Below, piece by piece: positions 34,351 through 44,347 of a stretch of DNA of 64,000 nt. Below the pieces are notes generated by a model. That model saw only the letters and a list, made by a program, of their open reading frames with translations, was not told where the DNA came from and searched no databases. This stretch comes from Caballeronia sp. TF1N1. GTDB lineage: Bacteria > Pseudomonadota > Gammaproteobacteria > Burkholderiales > Burkholderiaceae. The stretch is taken from assembly GCF_022878925.1 (NCBI RefSeq), contig NZ_CP084628.1, positions 620,001 to 684,000 on the forward strand, in the 5' to 3' direction. A program made the translations under genes and the position numbers. How positions within the stretch are numbered: the first letter of the stretch is position 1; each line of letters begins with the position of its first letter.

Positions 34351-34821
34351 ATGCGACGAATCACAGTACGAACTTCTCCCGTCCATGGCCGGGGCGTTTT
34401 CGCCCTCGCCGATCTACCCACCGGCGCGCTGCTGCTCGAATACAAGGGGCAGCGGCTGACGTGGAAGCAGGCGCAACGCAGCCATGAACGCTCGACCGCC
34501 GAGGACGGTCACACCTTCTTCTTCGGTCTCGACGATGGCAGCGTGATCGACGGCGCACGCGGCGGCAACTCCGCACGCTGGCTCAATCACAGTTGCGCGC
34601 CGAACTGCGAAGCCGAGCAGGACGGCGAGCGCGTCTTCATCTTCGCCATCCAGCCCATTCGAAAGGGCGATGAGCTCTTCATCGATTACCGCCTGACGGT
34701 GGAAGGACGGCGCACGGCGGCAATGAAGCGGCTTTATGCATGCCGATGTCAGGCATCGGGCTGTCGGGGAACGATGTTGTCGGCGGGAAGGAAGTGCCTC
34801 GCCGACAACGTCGACGCTTAG
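34351..34821 (+). CDS. SET-domain protein-lysine methyltransferase-like protein
   Basis: 156 residues, almost only the SET domain. [24 protein letters not shown], then the pseudoknot strands [18 protein letters not shown] (near residue 72-90, SAM and active-site Asn-His) and [10 protein letters not shown] (catalytic Tyr). A post-SET zinc motif [10 protein letters not shown] is at residues 130-139. The fold transfers methyl groups from SAM to lysines. Eukaryote-like SET proteins are found scattered in bacteria; their targets are mostly unknown. Its stop overlaps the convergent SDR gene by 4 bp. Confidence 0.92.
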
Positions 34822-36621: not shown

Positions 36622-36649
36622 TGCATCCCGTGCGCGTTGTGATCCGTAT
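36622..36649 (+). promoter_or_regulatory. Putative ECF-sigma promoter, copy 1 (sigma/anti-sigma operon)
   Basis: TGCATCC at 36622-36628, a 15-bp spacer and CCGTAT at 36644-36649. The same elements at the same spacing stand before the DUF1295 operon and, with one change, before the FAD-oxidoreductase operon. The pattern resembles published SigK-type promoters (CCATCC ... CCGAAT). It would start transcription about 35 bp ahead of the sigma gene, i.e. autoregulation. Confidence 0.7.
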
Positions 36650-36690
36650 CTTCCCTGAGAATACGAACGGGATGCCGGAAGGACACGGAC

Positions 36691-37416
36691 ATGACGAGGC
36701 TTCTTTATAGCGCCCTGGCGACAGATTGCTTGCAGCGCGCCGGCACGGTGATATATTTCGGCAGGACCTCACCCCCGAGCGCGGCTCGACCCATTCTGCC
36801 CATGACGGACACTACCTCCGGCAGCACCGGCAATTACTCCGACCGAAACGACGGCAGCGACACCGACGCCGGCTTGTTGCGGCGCGAGCGCCTGAACGAC
36901 ATGCTCGTGCGCGTCGCGAAGGGAGACCAGAAAGCGTTCGCGGAGTTATACCGCGTGACCTCGTCGCGCGTCTTCGGCGTGATCTTGCGGATGATGCACG
37001 ACCGAGGCGAAGCCGAGGACATCCTGCAAGAGGTCTACGCCGCCGCCTGGCGTCGCGCCGATTCCTTCGATCCCGAACGCGGCAGCGCCATCACCTGGCT
37101 CATTACGCTCGGGCGCAATCGCACCATCGACCGCATGCGTCAGCGCCGCGAGGAATTGCTCGGCGACGACGAAACCCCCGAAATCGCCGACGATGCCCCG
37201 ACACCCGCCGCCGCGGCCGAATCGAGCGAAGAGCGGCGGCGGCTCGAACAATGTCTCGACCGTTTGGAGCCGCAGCAAGGCCGCGCGGTGCGCGAAGCGT
37301 TCTTCACGGGCGCGACGTATAACGAGCTGGCGCAACGTCTGGCAGTGCCGCTCGGCACCATGAAGAGCTGGATTCGCCGAAGCCTCATGCAACTCAGGAC
37401 GTGCCTCGAACAATGA
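36691..37416 (+). CDS. ECF RNA polymerase sigma factor (SigK-like)
   Basis: 241 residues from ATG 36691, which has AAGGA seven bases upstream; the shorter start ATG 36802 (204 residues) lacks a ribosome binding site but gives a more typical length. Sigma-2 region: FAELYRVTSSRVFGVILRMMHDRGEAEDILQEVYAAAWRRAD; sigma-4 region: TYNELAQRLAVPLGTMKSWIRRSLMQLRTCL. The stop overlaps the RskA-like gene by 4 bp, the classic sigma/anti-sigma pair. It probably directs RNA polymerase to the three TGCATCC-N15-(C/T)CGTAT motifs here. Confidence 0.93.
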   Translation: MTRLLYSALATDCLQRAGTVIYFGRTSPPSAARPILPMTDTTSGSTGNYSDRNDGSDTDAGLLRRERLNDMLVRVAKGDQKAFAELYRVTSSRVFGVILRMMHDRGEAEDILQEVYAAAWRRADSFDPERGSAITWLITLGRNRTIDRMRQRREELLGDDETPEIADDAPTPAAAAESSEERRRLEQCLDRLEPQQGRAVREAFFTGATYNELAQRLAVPLGTMKSWIRRSLMQLRTCLEQ

Positions 37417-38141
37417 ACACGCCCGCCCAAAACGAAGACGATCTGCGCTGCGCCGAGTACGCGCTCGGCGTGCTCGACCTGCAGGAGCGCCGCGCGCTGG
37501 AAACGGACGTGACGCGCAATCCCGGTCTGCAACGCACGCTGGATGACTGGCACGAGCGGCTCGCTCCGCTCGCGCAGGACATCGCGCCGGTGACACCGCC
37601 CGCACGCATCTGGACGCGAATCCAGCGCGATCTCGGTTTCCTGCCGGAAGGCTCGGTGGCCAAGAAGAGCGGCTGGTGGAACAGCCTCGATCTGTGGCGC
37701 TGGCTGGCCGTCGGCGCGAGCGCCGTCGCTCTGGTGCTGGTCGCGGTGAATCTCACGCGCGCGCCGCAAGCGCCGCCGCAGCCAACCGTCGCTCAGGCGC
37801 CGCAATACATGGTGGCGACCATCGCGCAGAAGGACGGCGTCGCGCACTGGACCGCAACCGTCGACGTCTCGCGTTCGCGCATGGTCGTCGTACCGGCGGT
37901 GCAATCGGTCATCGCGGCGGATCGTGCGACCGAGCTCTGGCTGATCCCGCCGGACGCGAAGCCGATCGCGCTAGGCGTATTCCCGTCGAACACGCCTGCG
38001 ACCATGAACCTTCCGCCCGAGATCATGGCGCTCCTGAGCAACAAGGCGGTGCTGGCGGTGTCGGTGGAACCGCCGGGCGGATCGCCGACCGGTGCGCCGA
38101 CGGGTCCCGTGATCGGCACGGGCGAGATTCGCGGCACGTAA
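37413..38141 (+). CDS. RskA-type anti-sigma factor
   Basis: 242 residues from ATG 37413, overlapping the sigma stop. The N-terminal ~75 residues (LRCAEYALGVLDLQERRALE) are the sigma-binding helical part; a single membrane span lies near 102-120 (WRWLAVGASAVALVLVAVNL); the C-terminal RskA domain (ELWLIPPDAKPIALGVF) is periplasmic. No HxxxCxxC zinc motif is visible, so it is not a ChrR-type sensor. It should hold the sigma factor at the membrane and release it on an envelope signal, perhaps by proteolysis as in other RskA systems. Confidence 0.93.
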   Translation: MNTPAQNEDDLRCAEYALGVLDLQERRALETDVTRNPGLQRTLDDWHERLAPLAQDIAPVTPPARIWTRIQRDLGFLPEGSVAKKSGWWNSLDLWRWLAVGASAVALVLVAVNLTRAPQAPPQPTVAQAPQYMVATIAQKDGVAHWTATVDVSRSRMVVVPAVQSVIAADRATELWLIPPDAKPIALGVFPSNTPATMNLPPEIMALLSNKAVLAVSVEPPGGSPTGAPTGPVIGTGEIRGT

Positions 38142-38158
38142 CGCGCTACGTTACATAG

Positions 38159-38190
38159 GCGGTGCGCTTGCATTCTTTGCAGCGCACCGC
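38159..38190 (+). terminator. Hairpin after the anti-sigma gene
   Basis: Perfect 10-bp inverted repeat GCGGTGCGCT ... AGCGCACCGC, 17 bp after the stop. Little T-run follows, so it may be a factor-assisted terminator or a stabilising 3' end. It separates the sigma operon from the next unit, which has its own promoter motif. Confidence 0.6.
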
Positions 38191-38313
38191 TTGGCTTCGC
38201 GATCGAAAGTAGTCGTCGCGCCGCCTGACGAGCCCGCTTCACCGATGATCCGACGAACCAACGCCCACGCCGACGTCGAGTTTTCGTTCGCCGTCAACAA
38301 GACGCGCTCTAAC

Positions 38314-38341
38314 TGCATCCATCCCAAACCGGCATCCGTAT
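38314..38341 (+). promoter_or_regulatory. Putative ECF-sigma promoter, copy 2 (DUF1295 operon)
   Basis: TGCATCC at 38314-38320, 15-bp spacer and CCGTAT at 38336-38341, identical in both boxes and spacing to the copy ahead of the sigma gene. The predicted start is about 25-30 bp before the ribosome binding site of the DUF1295 gene. Confidence 0.7.
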
Positions 38342-38374
38342 TGCTCTATCGAACGCATGTTCGTGGAGCTTCGC

Positions 38375-39163
38375 ATGCCCGTTGTCGTCTCCTTCCTGAT
38401 TGCCTTCGCCGGCCTCGTGCTAATCTTCAGCGCCGTATGGCTCTGGCAATTGCGCTCGAAAAACGCCGGCATGATCGATCCGATCTGGGCGGCATCGCTC
38501 GCACTCGTCGCGCTGTTTATCGCGGTGGCCGGGACTGGCGCGTCCATCAATCGTCTATGCGTTGCGGCTGGCGGATGCGTCTGGGGCGCGCGCCTTGCCT
38601 TGCATCTGTGGCGGCGCAATCACGGCAAACCCGAAGACCCGCGTTATCACGCGTTTCGTGAACGCTGGGGCGCGGCAGCGGCGCGCAACATGTTCTGGTT
38701 CTTCCAGTTGCAGGTGCTCATCTCCATCTTGCTCGCGCCCGCGTTCTTCGTGCCCGCATATTCGGTCGAGCCCGCGCATCCGGTGGCTATCGCGGCGGCG
38801 GTCGTGGTGTGGATCATCGCCGTGGCAGGCGAAGCGCTGGCCGACCGCCAGTTGAAGCGCTTTGCCGCCGACCCATCGCATCGCGGCAAGGTGTGCCGCG
38901 ACGGCCTCTGGCGTTACTCGCGTCATCCCAACTATTTCTTCGAGTGCGTGCACTGGGTTGCCTACGCGGTGCTGTCGATCGGCCTGCCGTGGAGCTGGCT
39001 CACCATCGCGCCGCCGCTGTTGATGGCGTGGCTCCTTATCAAGGTGTCGGGCATTCCGCTGCTCGAAGCGCGGCTCGCCGAAACGCGCGACGGTTATCGC
39101 GACTACATGCGCACGACCAGCGTGCTGGTGCCGTGGCCGCCGAAGCCGCCCGTGCATTCATAA
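38375..39163 (+). CDS. DUF1295 membrane protein (steroid-5-alpha-reductase/ICMT-like)
   Basis: 262 residues from ATG 38375, with GGAG six bases upstream (ATG 38357 is longer but lacks one). Six or seven membrane segments. The C-terminal CRDGLWRYSRHPNYFFECVHW is the signature of DUF1295/isoprenylcysteine-methyltransferase-like enzymes, with the RHPNYF motif at the cytosolic face. Relatives reduce double bonds or methylate lipids. It heads an operon with a CFA-like methyltransferase and a lipocalin, 16 bp from the next gene, and is preceded by the ECF motif. Confidence 0.9.
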   Translation: MPVVVSFLIAFAGLVLIFSAVWLWQLRSKNAGMIDPIWAASLALVALFIAVAGTGASINRLCVAAGGCVWGARLALHLWRRNHGKPEDPRYHAFRERWGAAAARNMFWFFQLQVLISILLAPAFFVPAYSVEPAHPVAIAAAVVVWIIAVAGEALADRQLKRFAADPSHRGKVCRDGLWRYSRHPNYFFECVHWVAYAVLSIGLPWSWLTIAPPLLMAWLLIKVSGIPLLEARLAETRDGYRDYMRTTSVLVPWPPKPPVHS

Positions 39164-39179
39164 CCCGAGGATTTCGCCG

Positions 39180-40322
39180 ATGAACGCATCGACACGACAA
39201 GCCAGCCCGCTCGACAATTCGAATCCCCCGTTGGACGAAAGCTGGATGATCCGCCTTTGCGAACGCGGCTGGCTTCCCGACACGCTGGTGCGCGCCGGCA
39301 TGCGCGCGTTCATCCGCCAGCGTCTGCGCGACGAACACGCGGGCGACGGCGAGCGCCGCACGCAAGCGCTCGATACGCTGCTGGCCGATTTGCGCACGAG
39401 CCCCATTGCCATCGAAACGCAAGCTGCCAACACGCAGCATTACGAGTTGCCGGGCGCGTTCTTCGAAGCTCATCTCGGGCCGCGCCTCAAATATTCGTGT
39501 GGCTATTTTCCGAGCGGCCAGGAAACGCTCGCACAAAGCGAGATTGCGATGCTCGAAAGCTATGCCGAACGCGCGCAACTCGCCGATGGCCAGCGCATTC
39601 TCGATCTCGGCTGCGGCTGGGGCTCGCTCGCGTTGTGGCTTGCCGAGCGTTACCCGAAGGCGCGCATCGTCGCGTTGTCGAATTCGCATGGACAGCGCGC
39701 GTTCATCGAGGCTCGCGCGGCCCAGCGCGGTCTCACGAACCTGCTGGTCACGACCGGCAATATCGTCGATTTCGACTTCCCCGCCGATGGCGACGCCGTC
39801 GCGTTCGACCGCATTGTGTCTGTCGAAATGTTCGAGCACATGAAGAATTACGGCCTGCTGCTCGAAAAGATTGCGCGCTGGCTCGCCGACGACGGCAAGC
39901 TCTTCGTGCATATTTTCGCGCATCGCACGCTCGCTTATCACTTCGCCTCGCGCGACAGTTCGGACTGGATGTCGCGCTATTTCTTCACCGGCGGAACCAT
40001 GCCGTCCGCCGCGCTGCTGCTCAACTTCCAGGACGATTTGTGCGTGACGCGCCAATGGTGGGTCAACGGCTCGCACTACGCGCGCACGGCCGATCTCTGG
40101 CTCGCCGCGCTCGACGCGGCGCGCGCTCGCGTCATGCCGATGCTTCAGAACACTTATGGCGACGACGCCGCACTCTGGCTGCAACGCTGGCGCATGTTTT
40201 ATATGGCAGTGTCCGAACTGTTCGGCTATGCGTCCGGTAGTGAGTGGGGCGTCGCGCACTACCTGTTCGAGAAGCGGCTGAACACTCGGCCGAACACTCT
40301 TCAGTCAAAGGTCATCTCATGA
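39180..40322 (+). CDS. CFA-like SAM-dependent methyltransferase
   Basis: 380 residues. The SAM site is clear (RILDLGCGWGSLALWLAE, near 140). N-terminal part (HYELPGAFFEAHLGPRLKYSCGYF) and EMFEHMKNYG near 222 match the CFA/coclaurine-type methyltransferases. In this divergent subgroup the substrate can be an unsaturated acyl chain. It is not a canonical cyclopropane synthase, which is encoded separately at 43145. Its stop overlaps the lipocalin start by 4 bp. Probably works on a membrane lipid together with the DUF1295 protein. Confidence 0.9.
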   Translation: MNASTRQASPLDNSNPPLDESWMIRLCERGWLPDTLVRAGMRAFIRQRLRDEHAGDGERRTQALDTLLADLRTSPIAIETQAANTQHYELPGAFFEAHLGPRLKYSCGYFPSGQETLAQSEIAMLESYAERAQLADGQRILDLGCGWGSLALWLAERYPKARIVALSNSHGQRAFIEARAAQRGLTNLLVTTGNIVDFDFPADGDAVAFDRIVSVEMFEHMKNYGLLLEKIARWLADDGKLFVHIFAHRTLAYHFASRDSSDWMSRYFFTGGTMPSAALLLNFQDDLCVTRQWWVNGSHYARTADLWLAALDAARARVMPMLQNTYGDDAALWLQRWRMFYMAVSELFGYASGSEWGVAHYLFEKRLNTRPNTLQSKVIS

Positions 40323-40918
40323 AACGCGCACTCATTGCCGCGCTCGCTGGCGCGGGCATCATCCTGCTGGTTGCAAGCTGCTCGAATGGTCCGCCGAATC
40401 CGAACCCGCGCGCCGAACAGCCTTTGCAAAGCGTGCCTGTCGATCTGCCGCGCTATATGGGACGCTGGTTCGTGATCGCGAATATCCCCTACTTCGCCGA
40501 ACGCGATTTCGTCGCGAGCCATGTCATGTGGACCTTGCGCGACGACGGCAAGATCGTCGACGAGTTCTTCGGCCGCAAGAAGGGCTTCGACGCGCCCGAA
40601 ACGCATCATCAGTTTCTCGACTCGGTGAAGCCCGGCAGCGGCGGCGGCGAATGGAGCGTGCGCATCTTCTGGCCGATCCACGTGACGCAGATGACGCTTT
40701 ATGTCGATCCGGATTATCGCTACACCATTCTCGGCTATCCCAACAAGAAGCTCGGCTGGATCTTCTCGCGCGAGCCGACCATGAACGACGAGACGTATCG
40801 CTCGCTCCTCGCGCGTCTGGACGCAATGGGATACGACACGACGCAGTTCCGGCGCGTGCCGCAAAGCCCCGAGCAGATCGGACAGCCAGGCTTTCAAAGT
40901 CCCGGACAGGGCGACTGA
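40319..40918 (+). CDS. Lipocalin-type lipoprotein (Blc-like)
   Basis: 199 residues. Lipoprotein signal with lipobox LVASC near residue 20, then the lipocalin motif RYMGRWFVIANIP and DYRYTILGYPNKKLGWIFSREP, as in bacterial Blc. It should be anchored in the outer or inner membrane and bind a fatty acid or lysophospholipid. Overlaps the upstream CFA-like gene by 4 bp. In related lipid-stress loci a lipocalin is often encoded with CFA-type enzymes, which points to transport of the modified lipid or its fragments. Confidence 0.92.
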   Translation: MKRALIAALAGAGIILLVASCSNGPPNPNPRAEQPLQSVPVDLPRYMGRWFVIANIPYFAERDFVASHVMWTLRDDGKIVDEFFGRKKGFDAPETHHQFLDSVKPGSGGGEWSVRIFWPIHVTQMTLYVDPDYRYTILGYPNKKLGWIFSREPTMNDETYRSLLARLDAMGYDTTQFRRVPQSPEQIGQPGFQSPGQGD

Positions 40919-40936
40919 AAACCTTTGCATGCCATT

Positions 40937-40964
40937 TGCATCCGGCGGGCGCGCCGCATCGTAT
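40937..40964 (+). promoter_or_regulatory. Putative ECF-sigma promoter, copy 3 (FAD-oxidoreductase operon)
   Basis: TGCATCC at 40937-40943, 15-bp spacer, TCGTAT at 40959-40964. The upstream box and the spacing are identical to copies 1 and 2; the downstream box differs in one base. The predicted start is about 60 bp before ATG 41031. Confidence 0.6.
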
Positions 40965-41030: not shown

Positions 41031-42332
41031 ATGAACCGAAGAGCACCAGGACAAGGTCAGCGCATCGCCGTGGTCGGCGCGGGAATCGCCGGACTGGCGA
41101 GCGCGTGGCTACTCGCGCGCAAGCATCGCGTGACGTTGTTCGAATCCGCGGATTATCTCGGCGGCCATACCAACACCGTGGACGTGGAACTGGATGGTAA
41201 ACGGCATCCCGTGGATACCGGCTTTCTCGTCTTCAACGAGCGCACGTATCCGAACCTGATCGCGATGCTCGCCGAACTCGGCGTGGCGACGCATCAAAGC
41301 GACATGTCGTTTTCCGTGTCGCTCGATGGCGGGCGGCTCGAATGGGCAGGCACGAGTCTGAACACGGTCTTCGCGCAGCGGCGCAATCTGTTTTCGCCCG
41401 CGTTCATCGGCATGTTGCGCGACATTCTGCGCTTCAATGCAGCGGCGCAGCAGCATTTGGAGCGTGCAACGCTCAACCGGTGTTCGGTCGGCGAGTTGCT
41501 GCTCGAAGGCGGTTATGGCGCGCCGTTTCAGCGTCACTATCTTCTGCCGATGGCCGCCGCGATCTGGTCGAGCGCCGCCAGCGACATCTTGCGTTTTCCC
41601 GCCGCGACCTTTCTGCGCTTCTGTCTCAATCACGCGCTCTTGCAGGTCAACAATCGGCCGCGGTGGCGCACCGTGACGGGCGGCGGACGCGAGTATGTGC
41701 GGCGTATCGCGGCAACGCTCGACGATGTGCGCATCGGCACGCCCGTGCGCGGTATTCGTCGCGATGACGAAGGCGTCGTCGTCATGACCGATGACGCCGG
41801 ACCCGAGCGTTTCGATGCTCTCGTCCTCGCCACCCACGCGCCAACGAGCCTGCATCTGCTCGACGACGCTTCGGCCAGCGAGCGCACATTGCTTTCTGCC
41901 GTGCGCTATCAGCGCAATCTTGCCGTGCTGCATACGGATCGCGCGTTGCTGCCGCGCCGCCGCCGCGTGTGGTCGGCGTGGAACTATCTCGGCGCGCGCG
42001 CGTGGGCGGGCCACGGTGAGGCCGAACCGGTGTGCGTGAGCTATCTGCTCAATCAGCTTCAGCCGCTGCCGTTCGAAACACCGGTGATCGTGACGCTCAA
42101 TCCCGTCGATGAACCCGCGCCCGGCAGCGAACTCGGCCGCTACGAATACGAGCATCCGCTGCTCGATCTCGCCGCCGTGGATGCACAGCAGCGCCTGCCC
42201 GAGATTCAGGGCGTGCACAACACCTGGTTCGCGGGTGCGTGGACCGGATACGGCTTTCACGAGGACGGCCTGAAGTCGGCGTTGAGGATCGCGCGGGACT
42301 TCGGCGTGGAACCGGAATGGGCGCGCTTGTGA
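41031..42332 (+). CDS. FAD-dependent oxidoreductase (amine-oxidase/desaturase-like)
   Basis: 433 residues from ATG 41031 behind GGAG. The FAD site is RIAVVGAGIAGLASAWLLA at the N-terminus. GGHTNTVDVELDG and VDTGFLVFNERTYPNL are the signature of the NAD(P)/FAD-binding protein that always accompanies CFA-type genes, and the C-terminal FAGAWTGYGFHEDGLKSAL binds FAD. A desaturase- or oxidase-like role on acyl chains has been suggested for relatives; here that is inference. The stop overlaps the DUF1365 start by 16 bp. Confidence 0.92.
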   Translation: MNRRAPGQGQRIAVVGAGIAGLASAWLLARKHRVTLFESADYLGGHTNTVDVELDGKRHPVDTGFLVFNERTYPNLIAMLAELGVATHQSDMSFSVSLDGGRLEWAGTSLNTVFAQRRNLFSPAFIGMLRDILRFNAAAQQHLERATLNRCSVGELLLEGGYGAPFQRHYLLPMAAAIWSSAASDILRFPAATFLRFCLNHALLQVNNRPRWRTVTGGGREYVRRIAATLDDVRIGTPVRGIRRDDEGVVVMTDDAGPERFDALVLATHAPTSLHLLDDASASERTLLSAVRYQRNLAVLHTDRALLPRRRRVWSAWNYLGARAWAGHGEAEPVCVSYLLNQLQPLPFETPVIVTLNPVDEPAPGSELGRYEYEHPLLDLAAVDAQQRLPEIQGVHNTWFAGAWTGYGFHEDGLKSALRIARDFGVEPEWARL

Positions 42333-43126
42333 AGGTCGCGCGCGGCCACGGCGAGGCAGCACGTTTGCTCACGGGCCGCGTGATGCACGAGCGCCTGCGG
42401 CCGGTGCATCATCGCTTCGAGTATCCGGTTTGTTATGTCTCTTGCGACCTCGCGCGCCTTGGCGAAGTGAAGCGTGCGTGGTTCGGCATCGACCAGGTTC
42501 GGCCGTTCGCGTTTTTTCAGCGCGACTTCGGTCCGCGCGATGGCAGCGATCTGCAAACGTGGATGCGCGCCCGCCTCGCCGATGCCGCGATTCCCGCCGA
42601 TGGCGAAATCCGGCTGCTCTCCATTCCGCGCGTCTTCGGCCATGCGTTCAATCCCGTGAGCTTCTGGTTCTGCCATGACCGCGCGGGCAACTTGCGCGCG
42701 CTGTACGCGGACGTGCGCAACACCTTCGGCGAGCATCGCGGCTATCTCTTGAGCGCGCCCGACCACGCGCCTATCGTCGATGACACCGAGCTCGCCTGCC
42801 GCAAGACGCTGCACGTATCCCCTTTCTGCGACGTCGATGGCGACTATGCCTTTCGCGTGCGGCGGCATGGCGACCGGCTGTCGGTCGCCATCGACTATCG
42901 CGACCGCGACGGGCTATTGATTCGCACGGCAATCGGCCTGAAGGCGCGGCCGCTGACCGGCCCGCTTGCCTTGCGCACGCTATTGAGCCAGCCGCTGCTG
43001 ACTGTCGCCGTCGTCGCGCGTATTTACTGGCAGGCGTTTCGGCTCTGGATCAAGCGCGTGCCGTTCCACGGCAGACATCCGCCATCGGCCGAGGACCCGA
43101 ATGCGATGAAAGAACGGACCGAATAA
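42317..43126 (+). CDS. DUF1365 protein
   Basis: 269 residues from ATG 42317; GTG 42329 is an alternative closer to the upstream stop. The DUF1365 signature is visible: LRPVHHRFEYPVCYVSCDL, RLLSIPRVFGHAFNPVSFWFCHD and HVSPFCDVDGDYAFR. The biochemical function is unknown. DUF1365 genes are nearly always encoded with the FAD-binding and CFA genes, as here (18 bp to the CFA gene), so it is taken as an accessory of acyl-chain modification. Confidence 0.92.
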   Translation: MGALVKVARGHGEAARLLTGRVMHERLRPVHHRFEYPVCYVSCDLARLGEVKRAWFGIDQVRPFAFFQRDFGPRDGSDLQTWMRARLADAAIPADGEIRLLSIPRVFGHAFNPVSFWFCHDRAGNLRALYADVRNTFGEHRGYLLSAPDHAPIVDDTELACRKTLHVSPFCDVDGDYAFRVRRHGDRLSVAIDYRDRDGLLIRTAIGLKARPLTGPLALRTLLSQPLLTVAVVARIYWQAFRLWIKRVPFHGRHPPSAEDPNAMKERTE

Positions 43127-43144: not shown

Positions 43145-44347
43145 ATGAATCTTTTGCGGACGATTTCCGCGCAGGCGGGCATGCCGCTTTCGGCGCGGCT
43201 TTTCATGGGCCTCCTCAAACGCATACGCGTGGGTCATCTCGTGCTCGTCACGCCCGACGGCGACCGCTGTGTGTTCGGCGATGCCCTGCAGCAGCCCGCG
43301 GCTACGCTGCACCTGCACGACTGGCGCGCGTGCCGGGCCGTTCTCCGTTCAGGCGATATCGGCTTTGCGCAGGCGTATCGCGATCACTGGCTCGATACGC
43401 CCGACCCCGCGGCGGTATTGCGGCTCGCGATGCGCAATCAGAAGGTCGTCGAGCGCACCGTGAACGGTGGCTGGATCGCACAGTGCCTGCATAACGTCAG
43501 GCATCGGCTGCGGCCCAACACGCGCGCCGGCAGCCGTCGCAATATCCACGCGCATTACGACATCGGCAACGACTTTTACGCGCTCTGGCTCGACCCCACG
43601 TGGACCTATTCGAGCGCGTGGTTCGACGGCGACGCGAGCCTCTCGCTCGAAGCGGCGCAGGAACGCAAGTACCGGCGCATCGTCGAGACGCTCGGCTTGC
43701 GCGCGGGCATGCGCGTGCTCGAGATTGGCTGCGGCTGGGGCGGTTTCGCGCGGCATGCGGCGCGCGAGGGCATTCGCGTGCATGGCGTGACAATATCGGC
43801 GGCGCAGCATGCGTTCGCGCGCGAGCGCATGGAACGCGAGGGTTTGAGCGAACTCGTCGATATCGAGCTACGCGATTATCGCGATCTGCGTGAGCAATAT
43901 GACGCCATCGTGTCGATCGAAATGTTCGAGGCGGTTGGCGAGCGCTTTTGGGCCACGTACTTCCGCACGCTGCGCCGCTGTCTCGCGCCGGGCGCGCAGG
44001 CGCTGGTGCAGTCGATCACGATCGAGGATGCGCGTTTTCTGGCGTATCGCGCGTCGAGCGATTTCATCCGCGAGCAGATTTTCCCTGGCGGCATGTTGCC
44101 GAGCCCCGAGCGCTTCGTGCAGGCGGCGCAGAAAGCGGGGATGAACGCGGCGCCGTCGCTTGCGTTCGGCGCGGACTATGCGCGCACGCTGCATCACTGG
44201 CGCGCCGCTTTCGAAGCGCGGCTCGACGCAGTGCGCGCACTTGGTTTCGACGATGCGTTCATTCGCACGTGGCGGCTGTATCTGGCTTTTTGCGAGGCGG
44301 GCTTTGGTGAAGGGCGGATCGATGTGATGCATTTCGTGGTGCGGTAA
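43145..44347 (+). CDS. cfa: Cyclopropane-fatty-acyl-phospholipid synthase family
   Basis: 400 residues. The fold is canonical: NIHAHYDIGNDFYALWLDPT, then TYSSAWFDG, SAM motif RVLEIGCGWGGFARHAA (near 193) and SIEMFEAVGERFW with the conserved Glu. The C-terminal LYLAFCEAGFGEGRIDVMHF keeps the active-site Tyr region. Where E. coli Cfa has the bicarbonate-contacting His, I read LVQSITIEDA, a Gln. It would act on double bonds of membrane phospholipids using SAM. Last gene of the FAD-DUF1365-CFA operon. Confidence 0.92.
   Translation: MNLLRTISAQAGMPLSARLFMGLLKRIRVGHLVLVTPDGDRCVFGDALQQPAATLHLHDWRACRAVLRSGDIGFAQAYRDHWLDTPDPAAVLRLAMRNQKVVERTVNGGWIAQCLHNVRHRLRPNTRAGSRRNIHAHYDIGNDFYALWLDPTWTYSSAWFDGDASLSLEAAQERKYRRIVETLGLRAGMRVLEIGCGWGGFARHAAREGIRVHGVTISAAQHAFARERMEREGLSELVDIELRDYRDLREQYDAIVSIEMFEAVGERFWATYFRTLRRCLAPGAQALVQSITIEDARFLAYRASSDFIREQIFPGGMLPSPERFVQAAQKAGMNAAPSLAFGADYARTLHHWRAAFEARLDAVRALGFDDAFIRTWRLYLAFCEAGFGEGRIDVMHFVVR

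What the first reader, a model, noticed from the sequence alone, without database searches (positions are those of the whole stretch)
36622..40964. Three matching ECF-sigma promoter motifs define a local regulon
TGCATCC-N15-CCGTAT stands ahead of the sigma/anti-sigma operon (36622-36649) and of the DUF1295 operon (38314-38341) with both boxes and spacing identical; TGCATCC-N15-TCGTAT stands ahead of the FAD-oxidoreductase operon (40937-40964). They lie at promoter distance from each first gene, and the gaps contain no other such match that I could see. The pattern resembles the SigK type. It argues that one stress sigma factor controls itself and all lipid-modification genes of this island.
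Basis: partly seen in the sequence, partly recalled or inferred. Interest (0 to 1): 0.85.

Follow-up and report, generated by a model that had tools for sequence, protein, structure and literature searches.

The report
SigK-like stress regulon for membrane lipids
In this soil bacterium one stress-activated sigma factor very probably switches on itself and a set of membrane-lipid-modifying enzymes through three matching promoters; relatives carry the same switch in front of the same kinds of genes, which suggests, but does not prove, that its unknown trigger is light- or oxygen-driven membrane damage.

Summary
The genome (7.07 Mb, Caballeronia by kinship) has four exact matches, three within this 4.3 kb. 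The sigma's nearest solved structure is M. tuberculosis SigK; its partner has an RskA C-terminus. In Burkholderiaceae with this sigma the motif recurs before the sigma, DUF1295 and FAD operons, and is the strongest bipartite word found de novo upstream of them (46 of 62 regions; shuffles at most 8; coding control 20). Natural control: of 80 FAD-enzyme loci, all 8 with the sigma carry the motif, 70 of 72 without it do not; the two exceptions have the sigma elsewhere in their genomes. The regulon is not only local: an unlinked hydrolase gene has a near-match. SigK regulons are known, also in Yersinia. New is the content: it overlaps the singlet-oxygen regulon of Rhodobacter sphaeroides and includes, by domain and gene order, counterparts of furan-fatty-acid enzymes, so the unknown SigK signal becomes testable here. 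There are no expression data; signal and lipid product are inferred.

The parts
36622..36649 (+). Predicted SigK-type promoter 1 (TGCATCC 36622-36628, N15, CCGTAT 36644-36649), autoregulatory
   Evidence: PWM 21.4; equivalents in front of orthologous sigma genes
36691..37416 (+). ECF sigma factor, SigK-like
   Evidence: Pfam sigma regions 2 and 4; best solved relative 4nqw SigK 4.5e-36; below NCBIfam SigK cut-off
37413..38141 (+). Membrane anti-sigma factor with RskA C-terminal domain
   Evidence: PF10099 7.4e-24, 85 bits against cut-off 29.4; NF052375 112.4 bits against cut-off 100
38314..38341 (+). Predicted SigK-type promoter 2 (TGCATCC 38314-38320, N15, CCGTAT 38336-38341)
   Evidence: PWM 19.6; loosest form in 18 of 21 DUF1295 upstream regions, window included
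38375..39163 (+). DUF1295 membrane protein (ORF also open from ATG 38357); only PF06966 hit in the genome
   Evidence: PF06966 4.3e-65; single hit
39180..40322 (+). CMAS-family SAM methyltransferase 1 (possible FufM-like or UfaM-like lipid methylase)
   Evidence: PF02353 2.1e-38
40319..40918 (+). Lipocalin-like lipoprotein (Blc-like)
   Evidence: PF08212 8e-29
40937..40964 (+). Predicted SigK-type promoter 3 (TGCATCC 40937-40943, N15, TCGTAT 40959-40964)
   Evidence: PWM 19.9; loosest form in 16 of 20 FAD upstream regions, window included
41031..42332 (+). FAD-dependent oxidoreductase, candidate UfaD-type acyl desaturase
   Evidence: PF01593 3.6e-23; gene order D-O-M as RPA2571-2570-2569 in PMC7380195; nearest solved chain is amine oxidase LkcE
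42317..43126 (+). DUF1365 protein, candidate UfaO-type furan-forming oxygenase; only PF07103 hit in the genome
   Evidence: PF07103 8.3e-72; single hit; UfaO holds DUF1365
43145..44347 (+). CMAS-family SAM methyltransferase 2, candidate UfaM-type acyl methylase
   Evidence: PF02353 6.9e-85; best solved relatives are cyclopropane fatty acid synthases

Best explanation
The island is a SigK-RskA-like stress regulon. The membrane anti-sigma holds the ECF sigma; an extracytoplasmic or redox signal releases it; RNA polymerase with this sigma then starts at three GCATCC-N16-CGTAT promoters, raising the sigma/anti-sigma pair itself and two operons that modify phospholipid acyl chains (DUF1295-methylase-lipocalin and FAD oxidase-DUF1365-methylase), plus probably an unlinked gene, a secreted alpha/beta hydrolase at C4:286839. 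I think the second operon methylates, desaturates and oxygenates unsaturated acyl chains into furan fatty acids, and that the trigger is photo-oxidative or membrane-oxidative stress. Shown by sequence: sites, homologies, co-occurrence with the sigma gene. Inferred: that this sigma reads these sites (about 0.9), that the signal is singlet-oxygen-like (about 0.45), that the product is a furan fatty acid (about 0.5).
For: Motif and placement. De novo dyad GCATC-N17-CGTAT in 46 of 62 upstream regions; best dyad in 20 shuffled sets 5-8; best dyad in the coding control 20. 6 of 13 fetched loci that hold all three genes carry YGCATCC-N15-HCGTAT at all three operons (L054, L056, L061, L063, L065, L066). 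28 of 33 strong sigma hits (E below 1e-55, window included) have an exact match within 5 kb. Among 80 FAD loci: 8 of 8 with sigma, 2 of 72 without, Fisher 1.6e-9 (not corrected for relatedness); the genomes of the two exceptions, L088 and L090, encode the sigma elsewhere (63% and 59%). DUF1295 genes on another contig (L161) or 1.8 Mb away (L162) from the sigma carry the motif. Sigma nearest to SigK 4nqw, with Cys188 and Cys238 aligned to its redox pair, kept in 37 of 41 rows. Function.
Against: No expression or binding data. NCBIfam SigK cut-off not reached (174.6 against 226 bits). 5 of 33 strong sigma hits lack an exact match within 5 kb. Caballeronia cordobensis has the sigma (73%), yet its MerR-linked copy of the lipid operon (L117) lacks the motif. 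With the fully loose -10 (NCGTAT) a third locus without a nearby sigma, L108, has a match, and its genome holds only a 40% relative. Outside the family only 8 of 29 fetched sigma loci (of 58 hits) show the loose motif. This genome has no fasciclin hit, the usual SigK target. No direct alignment to UfaD, UfaO or UfaM was made. In M. tuberculosis oxidising conditions stabilise the SigK-RskA complex and reducing agent releases SigK (PMC7509140), which sits badly with a simple oxidative trigger.
Confidence: 0.8

Rival explanations
1. The three sites are chance or compositional, since CATCC and CGTAT words are common in this GC-rich genome.
For: With two mismatches the genome has 254 matches against 88 of the reversed pattern, so the words are somewhat favoured; 18 of the 21 one-mismatch sites were called inside ORFs by my crude ORF caller.
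Against: Exact matches are 4 against 0 and 116 against 5 over 150 family genomes; the sites recur at the same operons at 49-83% protein identity.
Confidence: 0.01
2. The motif is a promoter, but for another ECF sigma of the cell; the neighbouring sigma is not its reader.
For: A more distant sigma group (33-39% in these loci) also has the motif beside it, in front of ferritin-like genes (L043-L048), and genomes with only such distant relatives still have marked fasciclin and hydrolase genes (L167, L168, L172, L173), so the motif is read by more than one group.
Against: This genome has only one sigma hit at E below 1e-30; motif and sigma gene co-occur across FAD loci.
Confidence: 0.07
3. The sites are operators of a DNA-binding regulator (MerR, TetR or LysR type) rather than sigma promoters.
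For: Where no SigK-like sigma is in the fetched locus, relatives of the FAD operon have a TetR gene (36 of 72), a MerR gene (21 of 72) or both (1 of 72) in it.
Against: 70 of those 72 loci lack the motif, and only 1 of the 8 sigma loci has such a MerR gene and none a TetR; the two boxes have fixed spacing and mostly sit within about 110 nt of a start codon like -35/-10 elements.
Confidence: 0.04
4. The regulation is as described, but the lipid made is not a furan fatty acid: the FAD enzyme and methylases make methyl-branched (10-methyl) or cyclopropane acyl chains.
For: CMAS2's nearest solved relatives are cyclopropane synthases; FAD plus methylase pairs make 10-methyl fatty acids in actinobacteria (recalled, not from a call).
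Against: DUF1365 is the domain of UfaO, the furan-forming step, and the FAD-DUF1365-methylase order equals RPA2571-2570-2569, reported necessary and sufficient for furan fatty acids in R. palustris (PMC7380195).
Confidence: 0.35

Closest known systems
SigK-RskA regulon of Mycobacterium tuberculosis (PMC7509140: abstract, sections 3, 8, 11 and found passages seen)
   Same: ECF sigma with co-transcribed membrane RskA; autoregulation through Rv0449cp; redox cysteine pair; nearest solved sigma. From recall only: the locus Rv0449c-Rv0444c also encodes an FAD enzyme, DUF1365, the CMAS methylase UfaA1 and DUF1295.
   Different: Here three separate promoters; extra lipocalin and second methylase; no fasciclin (MPT70/83 type) hit in this genome; -10 box CGTAT (the M. 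tuberculosis box is recalled as CGAAT).
mpt83-sigK-rskA cassette of Yersinia enterocolitica (PMC7509140)
   Same: Gram-negative SigK-RskA pair with a SigK site before an mpt83-like gene; in Burkholderiaceae relatives fasciclin genes carry the motif 44-47 nt upstream in 13 of 15 distinct loci.
   Different: Described there as a minimal cassette; the lipid operons are not mentioned in what I read.
RpoE-ChrR (ECF11) singlet-oxygen regulon of Rhodobacter sphaeroides (PMC7074977 Table 1 as passage; PMC7380195)
   Same: Targets include UfaD, UfaO, UfaM, a photolyase, a fasciclin and a GTP cyclohydrolase, kinds that also occur among motif-marked genes of this family (the cyclohydrolase in 2 of 15 loci and the photolyase in one doubtful case only).
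   Different: Different sigma and anti-sigma; the GTP cyclohydrolase there is FolE2, here family PF01227.
RpoE-ChrR of Rhodobacter capsulatus (PMC7074977: passages and first part of the Discussion)
   Same: The paper states that its sigma and anti-sigma are closer to SigK (34%) and RskA (25%) and that both genes are induced by singlet oxygen (log2 3.7 and 3.4).
   Different: No homologues of the UfaD and UfaO genes there.
MerR- or TetR-linked FAD-DUF1365-methylase operons of other Burkholderiales and relatives
   Same: Same three enzymes in the same order.
   Different: Different neighbouring regulator, no SigK-like sigma in the locus, no motif.

Membership tests
SigK (NCBIfam PRK09646 / ECF18-ECF19) | Scores above the curated NCBIfam SigK cut-off | tested here: not met
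   174.6 bits against 226; PRK12514 197.3 against 265 also not met. I therefore write SigK-like.
SigK (NCBIfam PRK09646 / ECF18-ECF19) | Closest characterised sigma is SigK | tested here: met
   Among PDB chains 4nqw SigK 4.5e-36, next 2q1z RpoE 1.2e-25; PDB sequences only, no tree made
SigK (NCBIfam PRK09646 / ECF18-ECF19) | Cysteine pair 133/183 (94% of ECF18, 56% of ECF19 per PMC7509140) | tested here: met
   Cys188 and Cys238 align with them (my numbering assumes a 17-residue tag on 4nqw)
RskA anti-sigma | RskA C-terminal domain above Pfam cut-off, gene directly behind the sigma gene | tested here: met
   85 bits against 29.4; start and stop overlap (ATGA at 37413)
SigK regulon | Sigma-dependent promoter before its own operon (autoregulation) | tested here: inconclusive
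   Matching site present; use not measured
SigK regulon | Fasciclin (mpt83-like) target | tested here: not met
   No PF02469 hit in this genome; met in relatives
Furan fatty acid pathway UfaM-UfaD-UfaO | DUF1365 protein with FAD enzyme and CMAS methylase in one operon, order D-O-M | tested here: met
   Domains; order as RPA2571-2569 in PMC7380195
Furan fatty acid pathway UfaM-UfaD-UfaO | Direct sequence similarity to the characterised UfaD, UfaO, UfaM | not tested
   Their sequences were not fetched
Furan fatty acid pathway UfaM-UfaD-UfaO | Furan acyl chains in phospholipid | not testable with these tools
   Needs GC-MS
ECF11 RpoE-ChrR | ChrR-type anti-sigma next to the sigma | tested here: not met
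   Anti-sigma matches RskA_C and two anti-sigma models, no ChrR model listed

The most novel reading that the evidence does not exclude
SigK-RskA-like systems of Burkholderiaceae are photo-oxidative (singlet-oxygen) stress switches that make furan fatty acids as membrane antioxidants: the same enzymatic output as the RpoE-ChrR system of Rhodobacter, wired to a different sigma, while sister lineages put the same enzymes beside MerR or TetR regulators. If so, the still unknown signal of the SigK family, mycobacteria included, is oxidative damage of membrane lipids.
Probability: 0.35. Interest if true: 0.72.

Novelty: new member of a known kind. Interest (0 to 1): 0.5.

Why it matters
The signal for SigK is called still unknown in a 2020 paper (PMC7509140, Discussion passages). 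The Burkholderiaceae version comes with a readable output (lipid enzymes), a sharp promoter motif and a target list that overlaps a known singlet-oxygen regulon, in organisms that are not tuberculosis agents. That makes the question testable with a reporter and GC-MS. It also gives a case of one lipid module found with different regulators (SigK-like sigma, MerR, TetR, and RpoE-ChrR in Rhodobacter).

Tried and rejected
Chance or composition: rejected. Fourth exact genome match (C3:569201) as a regulon member: left open; it scores 17.3 and precedes a GAF/PAS gene, a kind I did not meet as a target elsewhere. Spacing variants N14-N17: three more matches in the genome, all N16, all inside ORFs by my ORF caller, not used. 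One-mismatch sites (L008-L028, 21 sites): 18 were called inside ORFs; among these are L027 (hydrolase) and L022, which I think mis-called. L027 stands out because its family is also marked in relatives; L022 (Gly-rich secreted protein) is weak, its similarity to a marked protein of a relative being E 2e-4 over 31 residues. The 2-mismatch sites were not followed up apart from L029-L033. Photolyase as target: one locus only, 350 nt away (L064), not counted. GTP cyclohydrolase: marked in 2 of 15 distinct loci. Anti-sigma against PDB: no hit at E up to 1. A text search for a published promoter consensus found none usable. PMC6180224 held none of the terms asked. In the listings I saw no paper joining SigK with furan fatty acids, or describing a Burkholderia SigK-type regulon, except the R. 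capsulatus remark in PMC7074977; the ECF reclassification paper and one SigK paper were not held, so earlier description cannot be excluded.
Full report
WHAT IS THERE. The pattern TGCATCC-N15-YCGTAT is present at exactly the three places named, and nowhere else in the window. The genome of 7.07 Mb has four exact matches and none of the reversed pattern; three of the four lie within 4.3 kb. Each of the three stands just upstream of the first gene of a same-strand gene group: sigma/anti-sigma; DUF1295, CMAS methylase 1, lipocalin; FAD oxidoreductase, DUF1365, CMAS methylase 2.

IS IT MORE THAN CHANCE. In 150 genomes of the family the exact pattern occurs 116 times against 5 for the reversed control, in 66 genomes (recounted from its table and list). 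The reversed control is imperfect: with two mismatches the own genome shows 254 against 88, so composition favours these words about threefold. Position settles it. The sigma protein searched in the same 150 genomes gives 33 strong hits (E below 1e-55, window included); 28 of them have an exact match within 5 kb, 54 of the 116 matches lie within 20 kb of one, 7 more near a weaker hit, and 55 near none. A search without a prior pattern, counting pairs of 5-mers in 62 upstream regions (sigma, DUF1295 and FAD genes of 21 other loci that I chose because they carry the sigma with its operons, plus the window), ranks GCATC-N17-CGTAT first with 46; the best pair in 20 shuffled sets reached 5 to 8, in the coding control 20. 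The regions include close relatives, so the 46 are not independent. By class the loosest form is in 13 of 21 sigma, 18 of 21 DUF1295 and 16 of 20 FAD regions. Of 13 fetched loci that hold all three genes, 6 carry the site at all three. In L037, one of the misses, DUF1295 lies inside the FAD operon, and the site stands before that operon's first gene, a GTP cyclohydrolase.

THE NATURAL CONTROL. Eight contain the SigK-like sigma; all eight carry the motif. Seventy-two do not; two of these carry the motif, L088 (Pandoraea commovens) and L090 (Paraburkholderia phosphatilytica). Fisher gives 1.6e-9, uncorrected for relatedness; nine of the 80 loci are shorter than 12 kb. Relatedness alone does not explain it: nine Paraburkholderia loci with FAD proteins at 74-76% identity have neither, while L091 (73%) and L115 (66%) have both. 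I then searched the whole genomes of eight of the 72 loci. The genomes of L088 and L090 do encode the strong sigma elsewhere (E 1e-68 and 2e-78), so the exceptions fit action in trans. Five without motif by the rule used (L082, L093, L096, L107, L108) hold only distant relatives (35-42%). One result goes the other way: C. cordobensis (L117) has a strong sigma (73%) but its MerR-linked operon copy has no motif. With the -10 loosened to NCGTAT, L108 gains a match, before a hydrolase. In the 72 loci a TetR gene is found in 36, a MerR gene in 21, both in one, neither in 14, anywhere in the fetched DNA (Pfam of examples, one MerR, L139, with B12-binding domains); among the eight sigma loci one has a MerR gene.

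WHAT THE SIGMA IS. Its best solved relative is SigK of M. tuberculosis (4nqw, 4.5e-36), ahead of RpoE of the RpoE-ChrR pair (1.2e-25). It stays below NCBIfam's SigK cut-off, so I call it SigK-like. The anti-sigma passes the RskA_C cut-off and an NCBIfam anti-sigma model. The two cysteines that form the redox bond in SigK (PMC7509140, section 3) are present and kept in 37 of 41 rows of at least 48% identity, window and some strains met twice included.

THE REGULON BEYOND THE ISLAND. Most of the loci below were fetched for their sigma gene, L043-L048 and L053 also because of a motif match, so the counts are not from a blind sample. The motif (last box NCGTAT) fronts fasciclin-domain secreted proteins in 13 of 15 distinct loci, always 44-47 nt before the start (Pfam); secreted alpha/beta hydrolases in 6 of 18 distinct loci besides the own one, 8 of the 12 misses being loci without the sigma; an unnamed lipoprotein in 7 of 7 loci, 68-76 nt; GTP cyclohydrolase I in 2 of 15 (L037, L039); and, in the more distant sigma group, ferritin-like proteins in 6 of 8. 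Of the 55 exact matches near no listed sigma hit I fetched 19, picked by eye and not at random, plus one 13 kb from a sigma (L165); 9 of the 19, and L165, front a DUF1295, lipocalin, fasciclin or hydrolase gene (L161, L162, L164, L166, L167, L168, L172, L173, L174); the other ten do not show such a gene, and 36 were not looked at. In the own genome a one-mismatch site (TGCATCC-N15-GCGTAT, C4:286839-286866) lies 44 nt before such a hydrolase. Fasciclin has no hit in this genome. Outside the family, 8 of 29 fetched sigma loci (58 hits were listed besides the own one) show the loose motif, 6 of them with CGTAG, against one control hit; so the specificity fades with distance or the sites lie outside the roughly 3.5 kb held.

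WHAT IT PROBABLY DOES. UfaD, UfaO and UfaM make furan fatty acids; the furan acid disappears on exposure to singlet oxygen, which kills Rhodobacter cells that cannot make it. UfaO holds DUF1365, and in R. palustris the genes are numbered D-O-M (PMC7380195: passages and sections 8 and 9). The window's second operon has the same three domains in the same order. The RpoE regulon of R. sphaeroides contains these genes plus a photolyase, a fasciclin and a GTP cyclohydrolase (PMC7074977, Table 1 as a passage), and the sigma pair of R. capsulatus, closer to SigK/RskA than to RpoE/ChrR, is induced by singlet oxygen. The overlap with motif-marked genes here is the ground for the proposed signal. Against it: oxidising conditions stabilise the SigK-RskA complex of M. 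tuberculosis, the photolyase and cyclohydrolase overlaps rest on few loci, and the enzymes here were not aligned to the characterised ones.

WHAT IS KNOWN. SigK-RskA regulons with a conserved site, also in Gram-negative Yersinia, are known, and their signal is described as unknown (PMC7509140). The present locus is of that kind with a fuller lipid cassette and separate promoters. I did not see the functional reading in the listings; that library lacks most subscription journals.

Noticed in passing
L036:3050-3631, and L038, L039, L040, L041, L061, L067: An unnamed lipoprotein family (no Pfam match for the L036 member) carries the SigK-type motif 68-76 nt upstream in 7 of 7 loci.
   Followed up: partly
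L043-L048: A second sigma group (33-39% identity) with a partner similar to the anti-sigma is divergent from a ferritin-like gene that carries the same motif 87-98 nt upstream.
   Followed up: partly
L139:7888-8844: MerR regulator with B12-binding domains next to the FAD-DUF1365-methylase operon of Rhodocyclus purpureus, a possible light-sensor wiring of the same module.
   Followed up: partly
L027:1791-2768 (own genome C4): A ferritin-like (PF13668) gene is divergent from the motif-bearing hydrolase gene.
   Followed up: no
L022:1114-1422 (own genome C3:112361): Near-match TGCATCC-N15-ACGTAT about 80 nt before a small Gly-rich protein; marked Gly-rich proteins also occur in L170 and L171, similarity weak.
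   Followed up: partly
window 34351-34821: Small protein that reads like a SET-domain protein in a bacterium; judged from the translation only, no search made.
   Followed up: no
L117: Caballeronia cordobensis has a MerR-linked copy of the lipid cassette (64% identical FAD protein) without the motif, although its genome also encodes the strong sigma.
   Followed up: partly
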